A DNA stretch of 64,000 nt from Corynebacterium atypicum. Lineage in GTDB: Bacteria; Actinomycetota; Actinomycetes; Mycobacteriales; Mycobacteriaceae. This document shows positions 36,660 through 42,706 of the stretch, in pieces (within the stretch, counting starts at the first letter, position 1; the number at the start of each line of letters is the position of its first letter). The notes beneath the pieces were generated by a model. That model saw only the letters and a list, made by a program, of their open reading frames with translations. It did no database searches and had not been told where the DNA came from. The stretch is taken from positions 2,242,310 to 2,306,309 of the forward strand of contig NZ_CP008944.1 of the NCBI RefSeq assembly GCF_000732945.1, in the 5' to 3' direction. The position numbers and the translations under genes are program-made.

Positions 36660-37086
36660 ATCGGCGCGACATGCCACCCCGGTTATACACCGGAGGTTTT
36701 CTTCGGCTCTCGCCCCGCCCCGGAAGCGTCGCCGCCAGAGCAGGGCGCCAAACTACTCGTCTTCGGTAGCAGGTACCTCGAGTTCGTCGTGAGATACTGC
36801 CTCGTCGATGACGTCTTCAACGCTTTCCATCGCGGGATCGTCCGCAGCCGGGTCCGAGCCCTCGGGCTCGGCTGGCGTGGCGTCCGGGTTAACGGAGGCG
36901 TTGGGGTCGATCGGCTTCAGCACATCGCTCGAGCTGCCGGAACCGGAGCCGCCGGGTGTGCACGCGCTGATCATGATTCCACCGATGGCCAGGCCGGCGA
37001 TCACCAGCCCGATGGCACCAGCGGCGGTGCGAACCTCGGGCTTGTTCAGCATCGCGTTGAAGTCCTCCACCATCCGTGCCAGCTGC

Positions 37087-37102
37087 GGGTTATAGGGTTA
37101 TA
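37087..37102. repeat. 8-bp tandem duplication causing a frameshift
   Basis: GGGTTATA occurs twice back to back. On the minus strand this gives TATAACCCTATAACCC in the codons for GLYNP; with one copy removed, the frames on each side join exactly (GLYNPQLARMVEDFNAML). This looks like a slipped-strand duplication. Confidence 0.85.
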
Positions 37103-40100
37103 AAGGCCCACCCGCTTCTGCAGCTCGGTGTTAGCTTCAGCTAGCTGGCGGGAGATGCTCTCCTGCCATTGCGACGCACCGGGCAGATTCACCTGAGTTG
37201 CCAGGCCCAGAGGAGCCAGGAGCAACAGCGGCAAACCGATACCAAGACCAGCGGCGATGCACTTGCCCATATCCGCGGGCTCAGACGAACCCGGCTTCTA
37301 CGGAGTCGGCGGATCTTGAGGATCCGGCGCCGGAACAACGGTGATCGGCGACTCACCAACCGTCTTGCCGTCCTTGGCAAAGACAACCTTATAGTCACCA
37401 GGCTCAGTACCCTCCGGCACCGAAACCATCACCGACCCATCACTCGGGTCAACAGTCACCGTCGAACCCGGGACCTCATCGCCACCCTGATCAACAACCT
37501 TGCCAGTCACCCCATCAGGGTTAACCACCTTGTCATCAACCTTGACCAGCTCACCAGAATTCGCAACCTCATCAGGCTGACCAACTTCCACACGCGGTGC
37601 AGTCGACTCAGTCACCTTCACCTGCACGGACACGGTCTCCGAGCTGCCGTCACCGTAGGTGACCTTCACCGGGACCTCGTAATCGCGGGCTTCAACATCG
37701 TCTCCTGGCTGGAGCCCGAGACGGCCATCGCGGGCAACCGTGACCCACGAGGGAGCACCATCGCCCAGCTCGAAAGAAGCCGCCGGGCGGTCGTTTTCAC
37801 CAACGATCGAATTCGTCGTGGTATCTCGGAAACTCGGCGCCGAGGTGAGCTTCCTGTCTGGCAGCCCCTTCTCCACGGTGATGCCGTCCTGGTATTCGGC
37901 GGTGTAATCCACGTCGTACCTTTGGGACTCGTTGGGGACGACCGTGATCGGCGATTCGGCCAGCGTCTCATCGCCATTCTTGTAGACGATCTTGTACCCG
38001 TCACCAGGCGTGGCGGCAGCCGGAACCTTCACGCAGGCATTGCCGTTGACGTCGATGCGGACCTCCGCACCTTCCACCGGGTTACCCTCGCCGTCCACCA
38101 GGGTGCCGGTGGTCTGATCGGTACCGTTCGCGATTATGTCGTCGAGGCGCTGGAACGCGCCGTCGTTGGGGATCTGGTCCTTCTCGTGCACGTTCACCGA
38201 AGGCGTGGGGTGCGTGACCTCGATTGGCGACTCGCCAATAGTATTGCCGTCCTTTTCGTAGACGACCTTGTAATCATCACCCACCGCGGCAGTGGGCGGG
38301 ATAGTCATATATACGTTGCCCATTTCCCCGACGGTGACGGTAGCACCGTCAACCGGATCCCCGTTTTCACCGCGAACAACCTTACCGGTCACACCGGCGG
38401 GGTTAACGACGCTATCGTCCAGCTCAGTCGGGGCCCCGGAGTGAGGAACCTGGTCACGGTCACCGGTGTCAATGCGGGGTGCAGGAGCATTAGTCGTCTC
38501 CGTGAAAGTGACGCTCGTCGCGTCACGGGAACCGTCAATATACACCACGGTAACCGGCACGGTGACCTCGTGATACTCCAGCTGGGGGATGGTGACCACG
38601 CCGGTCGTAGGGTCAACTTGCGCACCGGCGGGAGCGTTCGGGCCGAGCTCGAACTTCGCACCCGTAGGAACCGGTCCATTTTCCACATCGTCCGTGGTGG
38701 AGTCATCGAAGAGCGGGGCGGCAGAGGTGGTACCCGCGGCGACGTCCTCGTAGCGCGGCTCGTACTTCTGTGCCTCACCTTCATGCACGATCAAGCTATC
38801 GGAAGCCACCGGGTTAGCTTGTTCGTCTTTAGTCCGCAACGTAGCGGTGAAGATGTCGCCGTCTTTGGCGTCACCCGGAATATCGAAGGTGCACGAGGCT
38901 GCATCGACGGTAGTCGTGACCTCGCAGGTCTTCAGAGCCTTCGAGTTATTGTTTTTGGTCCAGACAACCGTGTAGCCGGTTTCAGAGAGCGTACCGGTGA
39001 GCTTAAGCTCAGCCGTCTCGCCACGCTTTGCCGGCTTGGTGCTCTGATTGAAGTTGGTGATATCGAGCTTCAGCGGTACGACGTCGCCGATCAACGCGTG
39101 GTTGACGTTGATGTACCGGCCGATGACCTGCGCTGACGGAAGGGTGTGCGGAACGGTTCGGGTGCCGGGGGCCGGCGAGCCGAATACCGGGCGAGTATAC
39201 GAAGAATACCCCGGCATCGGATTGCCGTTCTTATCTTCCACCCACATATACGAGTGCTCCCACTGGGTGTTGCTGTCCCCCTGGAAACCGTAATCACCAT
39301 TATCCTTGGTTTCGGTGACGAAGGTCTTCTCGAGGTACTCCGGGTGCTCCTTCAGCATCTTCTGGGTCTCCTGGGCCCAGAAACCCGGAGGATTAGCACT
39401 CTTCATCTGCGCGTTCGCCGCAGCACCTTCAGCGGTGAGCACCGATGCGTAGACCTTATAGCCGCCGACCGTTTTGTCACCCAACAACGGGTTATATGTA
39501 GCGCCCGTGCCTGCGGATACGCCCTCGCCCGCGCCGGTCTCACGCCACACCTTACCCGTAACCGAATAAGGGGAGATCGGGTTAACGCCCGGTTTCTGCT
39601 GGACGAGGTTCTCTGACTTGAAGTAGTTGTCCTTGCCGGCACCCCGACTTCCACGAGGAGCAAGCCAGCGAGCTGGTGGTTGCCTCCAAGAGCGGCGAAA
39701 TCGCCCATGTTTTTGTCTGCCACGTAGGCGAAAGCGTTGGGCAGGTAGCCATTGGCCTGGCGCAGCATGACGAGGCGGGTGCCGCGGCCGGTATCGATGG
39801 GGTCGACCCAGATGCGCCACTGTTGGTTGCCGCTGGCGGTGAATTCGTGGATCTTTCCTTTTTGTCGGTCCACTTGATGCCGCCGGGTACCGTGCCGTTG
39901 TAGTCTTTAGTTCCGTTGGCGCGGTCGCCGTACATGCCGAAGGCGAAAGTTCCGGGGCCGCCGTTGCCGTAGTTACCCGGGGCAACGTTGCGCGTCTTGG
40001 TCTTGTACACCGGCGAGACGGAGCCATCGCCATCGATGAACTGCGCGTAGACGGTGATGTTGTTCAGCGGGACGTTGTTGTTGCCACCGGTCATCTCGGG

Positions 40101-40443
40101 GCCCGAATTGGGCGCGTTCGACAGCGCCCACACGTGCCCGCCGATGAGCCCGGCGCCGCGCCCGAACGAGTCGGTGAGGAAGCCGGGCAGGTAGTTGCCT
40201 GCGCTGTCGTACGCCCGCGGCCCCTTAAAAGCGTCCGCGTCGATCACTCCGGAGATCTCATTTTGGCTATCGGGAAGTTCCAGAGGCGGCAGGTCTTTGG
40301 GCGCCATCAGGGCGGTGTTCTGCGCCATCGCCGGCGGCACGATGGTCCCCGTCATCGTGAGGGCAACGGCCGAGCCGGTGGCTACCAGGAGCCGGAAGTA
40401 CTTACTCTTCCGCCAGGCTCGGTGAGCGCTTTGAGGCTCAGTA

Positions 40444-40453
40444 CCCCCCCCCC
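40444..40453 (-). repeat. G10 homopolymer at codons 6-9 of the surface protein
   Basis: A run of ten C on the plus strand. Starting at ATG 40468, ten G put the signal peptide out of frame, while 8 or 11 G put it in frame (MSIFRGGGGTEPQSAHRAW). No other start codon opens the signal peptide between the upstream stop (40470-40472) and codon 40355. Long G tracts at this position are typical of slipped-strand phase switches. Confidence 0.7.
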
Positions 40454-40907
40454 GCGGAAAATACTCATATCAGTCACTTATGGTCATCCTTTTTGATTCT
40501 GCCCGCCCGGCGGCCCAGTGGCCCCGTGTGAGCGTCGATGGAGATGTCTAGGTCGCGCACGATGGAGCCACTGACAGCACCATAAATTTTCGCTGCAAAA
40601 GACCTGGTTTGAAGCTTAGCCACCCTTAGGTTCCATAACGTAAGCTGAATTTCCACTTAAGGCTCAGTCCGGCCGGATTATGTGCCAGAGGGGATGCATA
40701 CCCTATTTTTGCATCGTCTGCGTAACCATATACGTCAAGCTAGAAGCTCGTTCAGCAAACATAGAATTCCCTTACATACCATTAGTTACACACGCCCCAC
40801 AGCTCGCACGTCAACCTCAACCAGGGGTAGACTTTCGGCTAGCCTGCGGATCCCCTCGCGCAGCGAGCGGATCAGCCCCAGACGGGGCGCCTTTTTACCC
40901 CCCGGTC

Positions 40908-40936
40908 TTGCACCCCCAGGCACGGCCCTCTATGAT
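40908..40936 (+). promoter_or_regulatory. trp operon promoter
   Basis: -35 TTGCAC (40908-40913), exactly 17 bp, -10 TATGAT (40931-40936). The expected start of transcription, about 40943, is 3 or so bases before the trpL ATG (40946). The remaining part of the 40469-40907 stretch is the upstream region of the minus-strand surface gene and holds no supported gene; a small GCCCC...GGGGC hairpin with a T5 run lies near 40874-40896. Confidence 0.75.
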
Positions 40937-40945
40937 TCATGAGCC

Positions 40946-40999
40946 ATGAGTAACAATACCTTCCAGTGGTGGTGGCCCGCTCCAGCGGCGAGCCACTGA
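40946..40999 (+). CDS. trpL: trp leader peptide
   Basis: 17 codons with three consecutive Trp codons (FQWWWPAPA, residues 8-10) followed by TGA. This is a classical attenuation leader: stalling at the Trp codons when charged tRNA-Trp is scarce favours the antiterminator. The ATG lies only a few bases from the predicted transcription start, so translation may be leaderless or nearly so. It precedes the hairpin at 41026-41062 and trpE by 145 bp. Confidence 0.92.
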   Translation: MSNNTFQWWWPAPAASH

Positions 41000-41025
41000 T
41001 TGTTGCTACCTTCTTAAACACCCAA

Positions 41026-41062
41026 GGCTCGCATCGCTTGGACATCAAGCGGCGGGCCTTTT
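41026..41062 (+). promoter_or_regulatory. trp attenuator (terminator with alternative pairing)
   Basis: Terminator: GGCTCGCATCGCTTG (41026-41040) pairs with CAAGCGGCGGGCC (41046-41058), followed by TTTT. Antiterminator: GGCGAGCC in the leader (40988-40994 core) can instead pair with GGCTCGC at 41026-41032. Pause pairing: CCGCT with AGCGG just after the Trp codons. All three alternative pairs can be read directly from sequence. Confidence 0.88.
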
Positions 41063-41143
41063 GCTATACCCGGGCCCGGCGCACCGAAAATTTGACCCAC
41101 CTTCTGCCCCCAGCACATCTCACTAAGACAGAAAGGCCCGCCG

Positions 41144-42706
41144 GTGAGCCCTATCGAGCAGATCATCGCCTACCACCCGGACGCCTCCGAGCTGTTCAAG
41201 CACCTCGGCGGCACGGACGCGGACTTTACCGTTTTTCTCGAGTCCGCCGACGTGAGCACACAGTCCGGCATCAACTCGATAGGCGTGCTCAAGGCCGCCG
41301 CGGTGGTCACGTGCACCGGCCAGACAGTCCAGGCTACAGCGCTTTCGCCAGCAGGCGAAGAGCTAGTGGGCCTCGTCGAGAAGGCGAAAGAACAACAGCG
41401 CGCGCACGCGGCGCACTATGCACCCGGGGGGAAGTGCGCGGCGGGGGAGACTGCCGACGAGCGCGCGCGGCTTCAGGCCACCAGCAACGCCGAGGCATTG
41501 AAGGCGATCCACCGCAGCGGGCATATGCTGCTCGGCGGCTTCGCCTTCGACTACCTGGCCACCTTCGAGGAGCTGCCCGAGGTCGCCCAGGGCCCGAACA
41601 CCTACCCGGACTACCAGTTCATCATTCCGGAGCTGATGCTCACGCTCAACCACCGGGATCGAACCGCGAGCCTCAAGGTCTTTCCTACGAGCACCGAGCA
41701 CGCCCGAGAGCTTTCCGACGCGCTGTGCGCGCTTGCCAAGCGGGCCCGCGAACTGGATCGCCGCCCACCGCGTGAGACGCCAGAAGACGCGCACCTTAGC
41801 AGTAAGGGCGCGGCGGGGGAGCGCACAGCAAGCGGTGCGCTTAATGTCACTGTGTCGCTTGACGACGCCGCGTTCTGCGCCGGGGTCACCCAATTCCAGC
41901 GCGACATCGCCGCGGGCGACGTCTACCAGATCGTCCCCTCGCGCGCCTTCCACGCGCCGTGCCCGGACGCGTTCGCCGCCTACCAAGTACTGCGCGTGAC
42001 CAACCCGAGCCCCTACATGTTCTATCTGCGTGGCAGGGACGCCGCCGGGACACCCTTCGAGCTTTTCGGGGCGTCGCCGGAATCAAACCTCAAGTACACC
42101 CACGTGGATCGCAGGGTGCGTCTTTATCCCATCGCGGGCACCCGCCCGCGCGGAGCCTCGCCTGAGATGGATGTCCGCAACGAGCTCACCTTGCGCACTG
42201 ACGCTAAGGAACTCGCCGAACACACGATGCTGGTCGACTTGGCCCGCAACGACGTCGCCCGAGTGAGCTCGCCCGGTACCCGCACCGTCGACCAGCTGAT
42301 GTCCGTCGAGCGCTACTCGGCGGTCATGCACCTCGTGAGCGAGGTCAGCGGCCAGCTCGCCAGTGGCTTGGACGCACTCGACGCATTCCGGGCCTGCATG
42401 ACGATGGGAACGCTCACCGGTGCGCCGAAGTTGCGGGCCGCGGAGCTTATCCGCTCATTTGAGGGGATGCGCCGCGGCAGCTTCGGCGGGGCCATCGGCT
42501 ACCTCAAGCCAGACGGCGACATGGACACCTGCGTAGTCATCCGCTCAGCGTTCGTGCAAGGCGGACGCGCCATCGTGCAGGCAGGCGCGGGCGTCGTCCG
42601 CGACTCGGTACCACAATCCGAGGCGGACGAGACCCTGCACAAGGCTTTTGCGGTGCTGCACGCGCTCGCCCTTTCCCAAGGCAAGACGATGGAGGTAACG
42701 CGATGA
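41144..42706 (+). CDS. trpE: anthranilate synthase component I
   Basis: 520 residues. The feedback motif LES is near residues 32-34 (VFLESADV). Chorismate-site blocks are intact: MLVDLARNDVARVS, AVMHLVSEVSGQL, MGTLTGAPKLRAAELI and FGGAIGYLKPDGDMDTCVVIRS. With TrpG it makes anthranilate from chorismate and glutamine. The start is GTG with AGAAAGG upstream. Regulated by the attenuator upstream. Stop overlaps trpG by 4 bp (ATGA). Confidence 0.97.
   Translation: MSPIEQIIAYHPDASELFKHLGGTDADFTVFLESADVSTQSGINSIGVLKAAAVVTCTGQTVQATALSPAGEELVGLVEKAKEQQRAHAAHYAPGGKCAAGETADERARLQATSNAEALKAIHRSGHMLLGGFAFDYLATFEELPEVAQGPNTYPDYQFIIPELMLTLNHRDRTASLKVFPTSTEHARELSDALCALAKRARELDRRPPRETPEDAHLSSKGAAGERTASGALNVTVSLDDAAFCAGVTQFQRDIAAGDVYQIVPSRAFHAPCPDAFAAYQVLRVTNPSPYMFYLRGRDAAGTPFELFGASPESNLKYTHVDRRVRLYPIAGTRPRGASPEMDVRNELTLRTDAKELAEHTMLVDLARNDVARVSSPGTRTVDQLMSVERYSAVMHLVSEVSGQLASGLDALDAFRACMTMGTLTGAPKLRAAELIRSFEGMRRGSFGGAIGYLKPDGDMDTCVVIRSAFVQGGRAIVQAGAGVVRDSVPQSEADETLHKAFAVLHALALSQGKTMEVTR

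What the first reader, a model, noticed from the sequence alone, without database searches (positions are those of the whole stretch)
40444..40468. G10 tract at codons 6-9 may act as an ON/OFF switch for a surface protein
From ATG 40468 the gene reads MSIFR, then the G run. With ten G the signal peptide is out of frame; with 8 or 11 G it is in frame and forms a clean signal sequence. No other start codon allows signal-peptide translation. Long poly-G tracts at the 5' end of surface genes are established phase-variation sites in other bacteria. Two qualifications: the gene has other lesions downstream, and homopolymer length is error-prone in some sequencing methods.
Basis: partly seen in the sequence, partly recalled or inferred. 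Interest (0 to 1): 0.75.

Follow-up and report, generated by a model that had tools for sequence, protein, structure and literature searches.

The report
Slippery G tract in decayed surface gene
A run of ten Gs near the start of a broken bacterial surface-protein gene puts its secretion signal out of frame, while a near-identical relative has it in frame, so this looks like a slippage switch left behind in a gene that no longer makes a whole protein.

Summary
In detail: G10 on the minus strand at 40444-40453, codons 6-9 of a leader starting at ATG 40468 (or GTG 40477). In the window the leader stops after 28 codons, and the signal-peptide frame has no ATG, GTG or TTG until inside its hydrophobic core. 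New evidence: P0058, an ENA protein 99% identical to the window's N-terminal piece, reads MSIFRGGGGTEP straight into the signal peptide, so the tract is in frame there. But P0058 and P0001 share the downstream damage: in frame, the gene could give only a 295-residue secreted fragment. The gene is a YPDG/RibLong surface protein, the only RibLong gene found in this genome. In five other genomes of the genus, relatives of this gene have G9-G14 runs upstream; in one ortholog set the run is 8, 10 or 12 long. In genomes picked for having such a run, 14 of 25 runs lie before signal-peptide genes; in three not so picked, 1 of 19. Best reading: a slippage-type leader switch, OFF here, now vestigial; a kind known from Cutibacterium acnes, for which I found no description in Corynebacterium. 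Neutral drift in a pseudogene is the main rival.

The parts
40444..40453 (-). G10 tract in codons 6-9 of the leader
40466..40468 (-). ATG start (the start that the sister protein P0058 begins with)
40475..40477 (-). in-frame GTG, alternative start with better ribosome-binding-site spacing
   Evidence: read; inference
40487..40494 (-). AAAAAGGA, probable ribosome-binding site
   Evidence: read; inference
40320..40443 (-). rest of leader and signal peptide, out of frame with the start at G10
   Evidence: cleavage after AMA or AMAQ is inferred
39861..40319 (-). N-terminal region of the mature protein, first frame
   Evidence: frame changes near 39860
39641..39873 (-). second coding piece, another frame (edges approximate)
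37298..39640 (-). third coding piece with two RibLong/YPDG repeat regions, ending at a stop at 37298-37300 (start approximate)
37094..37297 (-). C-terminal region beyond the stop, similar to P0004 1017-1093
36753..37073 (-). C-terminal hydrophobic piece in yet another frame, similar to P0004 1091-1193

Best explanation
The G10 is a slippage-prone tract in the coding leader of a YPDG/RibLong secreted surface protein of a Corynebacterium. When the tract gains or loses Gs at replication, the start codon moves into or out of frame with the signal peptide, so translation is ON or OFF. The window strain is OFF, a near-identical sister is in frame. The gene has since been damaged further down in both, so the switch is now a vestige: ON could give only a secreted N-terminal fragment. 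Shown: the tract, the frames, a sister protein in frame, the shared damage, long G runs upstream of relatives. Inferred: that the difference arose by slippage in living cells, that the switch once controlled a whole protein, that the fragment has little or no function.
For: Tract and frames. Sister protein P0058 in the signal-peptide frame, 2 of 257 residues different downstream, with the same out-of-frame tail. P0001 differs at 2 of 749 residues and ends at the same point. The leader aligns with the IFRRGGG leader of P0004, P0032 and P0037. 5 of 63 distinct homologue 5' regions have a G run of >=9 within 450 nt upstream against 0.06 expected at the genus mean, in about three homologous groups. 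Run lengths 10, 12 and 8 in one ortholog set. No MutS_V match in the genome (11 of 14 control genomes have one), NucS present; NucS of M. smegmatis does not repair 1-2 bp indels (PMC11551767, passages).
Against: The gene is broken downstream, so there is nothing whole left to switch. The sister's tract length is inferred from protein letters. Run length alone is not beyond a Markov null. The own genome has 20 runs of >=9, most of them not in front of surface genes. No other of 242 genus genomes showed an IFR-plus-G-run leader in front of a signal peptide; the pattern hit 3 other genomes, none resembling this leader by eye. Upstream runs in relatives are in another position than the window tract. 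In three genomes not chosen for a run, only 1 of 19 runs lay in front of a clear signal-peptide gene.
Confidence: 0.55

Rival explanations
1. Neutral decay: the tract is an unselected homopolymer in a pseudogene, in a genome that accumulates long G runs; its length drifts without consequence and never was a switch.
For: Several downstream lesions shared with sister sequences. 20 runs of >=9 in the genome, among them in a transporter gene and a dnaE2-like gene whose frames break at the run. Markov null not exceeded.
Against: The run sits in a leader motif (IFR-GGG) kept in longer open homologues, right before the signal peptide, and relatives of this gene have G runs upstream more often than the genus mean predicts. 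A gene that was phase variable and then decayed would look the same, so the two readings overlap.
Confidence: 0.3
2. Counting artefact: the tract has one true length, and the difference between the window and P0058 is a homopolymer error in one assembly.
For: The difference is a single glycine codon frame in a long homopolymer; reads were not available.
Against: P0058 and the window differ elsewhere too, so they are different alleles; neighbouring genes in the window have long open frames; runs of 9-14 in unrelated assemblies of relatives show that long G runs are real in the genus.
Confidence: 0.12
3. Slippage of RNA polymerase or ribosome at G10 lets a fraction of products reach the signal-peptide frame, so the gene leaks rather than switches.
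For: Long homopolymers can do this (established knowledge, recalled; not tested here).
Against: No call bears on it; it could coexist with the best explanation.
Confidence: 0.03

Closest known systems
Cutibacterium acnes PPA2127 (dermatan-sulphate-binding adhesin) and PPA1880
   Different: Other genus and unrelated proteins as far as named there; those were sequenced in three strains, here only one sister protein is seen, and the window gene is broken further down.
Variable homopolymeric tracts of Cutibacterium acnes (54 in 90 genomes)
   Same: Almost only G/C tracts, between genes or affecting reading frames (PMC4746626, passages).
   Different: Population data for one species; here one strain, one sister protein and other species.
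YPDG/RibLong surface proteins P0004, P0032, P0037 (P0037 named C. frankenforstense)
   Same: Leader IFR-GGG, N-terminal region, repeats and C-terminal region align.
   Different: They are long open proteins (P0037 marked partial); the window copy is split over frames.
Poly-G phase variation of Neisseria genes such as hmbR
   Same: Poly-G in the reading frame as ON/OFF switch (PMC3786947, start of abstract in a search listing).
   Different: Other phylum, other proteins, shown experimentally there.

Membership tests
Slipped-strand phase-variable gene with a tract in the reading frame | long homopolymer near the 5' end of the coding sequence | tested here: met
Slipped-strand phase-variable gene with a tract in the reading frame | change of length switches the frame of the product | tested here: met
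Slipped-strand phase-variable gene with a tract in the reading frame | length differs between close strains | tested here: inconclusive
   P0058 in frame against the window out of frame; protein letters only, no reads
Slipped-strand phase-variable gene with a tract in the reading frame | whole gene downstream when in frame | tested here: not met
   shared by P0058 and P0001
Slipped-strand phase-variable gene with a tract in the reading frame | reversible switching within a clone | not testable with these tools
   needs reads or culture
YPDG/RibLong surface protein | RibLong or YPDG repeats above the curated cut-off | tested here: met
   RibLong 95.5 bits (cut-off 27), YPDG repeat 86.4 bits (cut-off 40) in the third piece
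YPDG/RibLong surface protein | signal peptide | tested here: met
   read by eye in the sequence and by alignment; no signal-peptide predictor was run
YPDG/RibLong surface protein | C-terminal hydrophobic region in frame with the rest | tested here: not met
   lies beyond a stop and in another frame

The most novel reading that the evidence does not exclude
A lineage of Corynebacterium uses slippage of poly-G tracts to switch YPDG/Rib-type and other secreted proteins, in two layouts: inside the coding leader (window species) and in the upstream or promoter region (G155, G176, G177, G178, G098), where some runs sit between a TTGACA and a -10-like hexamer. With NucS and no MutS such tracts would go unrepaired, giving a switch repertoire not described for the genus in the papers I could search.
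Probability: 0.45. Interest if true: 0.62.

Novelty: new member of a known kind. Interest (0 to 1): 0.42.

Why it matters
It would extend homopolymer phase variation, known in Cutibacterium and Neisseria, to surface proteins of Corynebacterium, and it names loci where tract length could be counted at once in existing reads. It also shows what such a switch may look like after its gene has decayed.

Tried and rejected
A start beyond the tract: rejected, the first ATG/GTG/TTG in that frame is inside the hydrophobic core. Named relatives with DNA: both scans of genome contigs found no relative, so the leader DNA of P0004, P0032 and P0037 and the species of the window were not obtained; that it is a Corynebacterium is inferred from names of homologues. 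A second genome with this leader: the IFR-plus-G8 pattern hit 3 of the 241 other genomes, none resembling it by eye. A sigma-70-like promoter just upstream of the gene: 0 found at the tool's threshold in 40440-41150, which is against an active gene. A density control for G runs was invalid: its 2 hits are runs upstream of the homologues themselves, since not all loci are turned; I used the genus mean instead. That mean does not allow for intergenic DNA tolerating runs better. The idea that long G runs mark secreted-protein genes throughout the genus: not supported. My first reading, 0 of 19 runs in three genomes not chosen for a run (G187, G117, G092; note), was wrong; a recheck found 1 clear case, L180 in G187, and one unsure one, L159 in G092. 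Literature: searches for Corynebacterium with phase variation, homopolymer, poly-G or slipped-strand mispairing listed no paper that names such a switch in the genus by title or start of abstract; one search listed 25 of 145 papers. Only passages of three papers were seen; the library lacks most subscription journals.

Full report
What is there. The window holds C10 at 40444-40453, a G10 on the minus strand. Upstream on that strand lie AAAAAGGA, an in-frame GTG (40477) and ATG 40468. Read from the ATG the window gives 28 codons, MSIFRGGGVLSLKALTEPGGRVSTSGSW, then TAG. A signal peptide (HRAWRKSKYFRLLVATGSAVALTMTGTIVPPAMAQ) follows the tract in another frame, with no ATG, GTG or TTG before ATG 40355 in its hydrophobic core.

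Chance. A G/C run of 10 or more is not rare in 64 kb under a first-order Markov model: 36% of 200 simulations had one. The real sequence, however, is poor in runs of 5 to 7, and 24 genes of the window hold none above 6. The own genome has 20 runs of >=9, ten of them >=10; the median of 242 genus genomes is 3, and 13, this one included, have 20 or more. The run by itself proves little.

The gene. The pieces belong to a YPDG/RibLong secreted surface protein: RibLong 95.5 bits and YPDG repeat 86.4 bits in the third piece, and similarity of five pieces to P0004. A search of the own genome with the RibLong family gave two matches, both in this gene. The frame changes near 39860, 39640 and 37095, and a stop lies at 37298-37300. 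Most neighbouring genes have long open frames. No promoter-like site was found just upstream at the tool's threshold.

The sister alleles. A search with the N-terminal ORF found P0058: 295 residues, 6 members, source ENA, contig of 28,863 bases; whether it is metagenomic is not stated. It begins MSIFRGGGGTEPQ and goes on in the signal-peptide frame, with one glycine more before TEP than the window's signal-peptide frame shows from its own codons; the DNA was not seen. Over the 257 residues that both encode it differs at two, and it carries the same tail beyond 39860. P0001 (750 residues, 7 members, no source shown, contig of 6,335 bases) differs from the window at 2 of 749 residues compared and ends at the same point. 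So the downstream damage is shared and unlikely to be an assembly fault. In frame, the product would be a secreted fragment without the C-terminal region.

Leader homologues. P0004, P0032 and P0037 share the leader MNSSQIIFRRGGGSRRN, which aligns with MSIFRGGGGTEP. Their DNA was not obtainable. In the genus the IFR-plus-G8 pattern hit 4 of 242 genomes, the own one and three that do not resemble this leader by eye.

Relatives with upstream runs. In 242 genus genomes, the own one included, 42 match the N-terminal piece and 64 match residues 1-415 of P0004. I gave a script 100 loci (60 returned with the best matches of those searches, and 40 regions that I picked from further matches, not all of them). 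10 could not be anchored, 27 were duplicates, and 63 distinct 5' regions remained, at least six with visibly misplaced anchors. 5 of 63 hold a G run of >=9 within 450 nt upstream, against 0.06 expected at the genus mean of 2.2 per Mb. They fall into about three homologous groups, so they are not five independent events, and intergenic DNA may tolerate runs better than genes. In the MRNSYKARRG ortholog set the run is 10 (G177), 12 (G155) and 8 (G178) at the same place.

How general. In the five genomes chosen because they had such a run (G155, G176, G177, G178, G098), by eye 14 of 25 runs of >=9 lie upstream of a gene with a signal-peptide-like start, and one more before a membrane protein. In three genomes not chosen for a run (G187, G117, G092), 1 of 19 does so clearly, L180, whose gene resembles one with a run in G155, G177 and G178; one more is unsure. 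The pattern is thus strong in one set of genomes that was picked for it and weak outside. Some runs sit between TTGACA and a -10-like hexamer, which would suit a promoter-spacing switch; that is a lead, not a test.

Mechanism. The genome gave no MutS_V match, where 11 of 14 control genomes did, and one NucS match. PMC11551767 (passages) reports that M. smegmatis NucS does not repair 1-2 bp indels and links this to phase variation in mycobacteria. Slippage at G10 would then go uncorrected. That slippage happens in these cells is inferred.

Comparison. The nearest known cases are Cutibacterium acnes PPA2127, with a C tract in the 5' end of an adhesin gene, and PPA1880, with a G tract of 11, 13 or 15 in promoter or N-terminus (PMC3224659, passages), among 54 variable tracts in 90 genomes of that species (PMC4746626, passages). 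The window tract would work like these. It fails one feature of a working phase-variable gene, a whole gene downstream; length variation is seen in one sister protein only; switching within a clone could not be tested.

Verdict. Observation confirmed; interpretation partly supported. Best reading: a slippage-type leader switch, OFF here and in frame in a sister, now vestigial. Neutral drift in a pseudogene is the main rival.

Noticed in passing
L107/L109 (G178), L104 (G177), L176 (G155): Upstream elements TTGACA-AATGAT(GA)-[G10 to G13]-C-TTAAAT or TTGAAT in front of small secreted or membrane proteins; the run would set the spacing between -35 and -10.
   Followed up: partly
L080 (G177), L139 (G155), L141 (G178): Ortholog set with a G run of 10, 12 and 8 upstream of a YPDG/Rib-type gene; in L080 the run is flanked by the inverted repeat GTTTTGG / CCAAAAC.
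   Followed up: partly
L101 (G177), L111 (G178), L167 (G155), L180 (G187): G10 upstream of a secreted protein with the start M-(T/A/N)-IALKKTAAIAIAAGLTFAGSAG or similar, in four genomes.
   Followed up: partly
L025 (own genome, C1:1751918-1751930): G13 in a transporter gene of MFS type (by eye), at the point where its frame appears to break.
   Followed up: no
L008 (own genome, C1:513188-513198): G11 in a gene that looks like the error-prone polymerase dnaE2 (recalled), whose frame seems to break at the run and once before it.
   Followed up: no
L017/L020 (own genome, C1:936465-936495): Block of C10, A10 and G11 in a row, an odd hairpin-like sequence; natural or assembly fault not known.
   Followed up: no
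L001 (own genome, C1:122999-123008): G10 about 280 nt upstream of a secreted protein that looks like a pilin backbone (SpaH-like, recalled).
   Followed up: no
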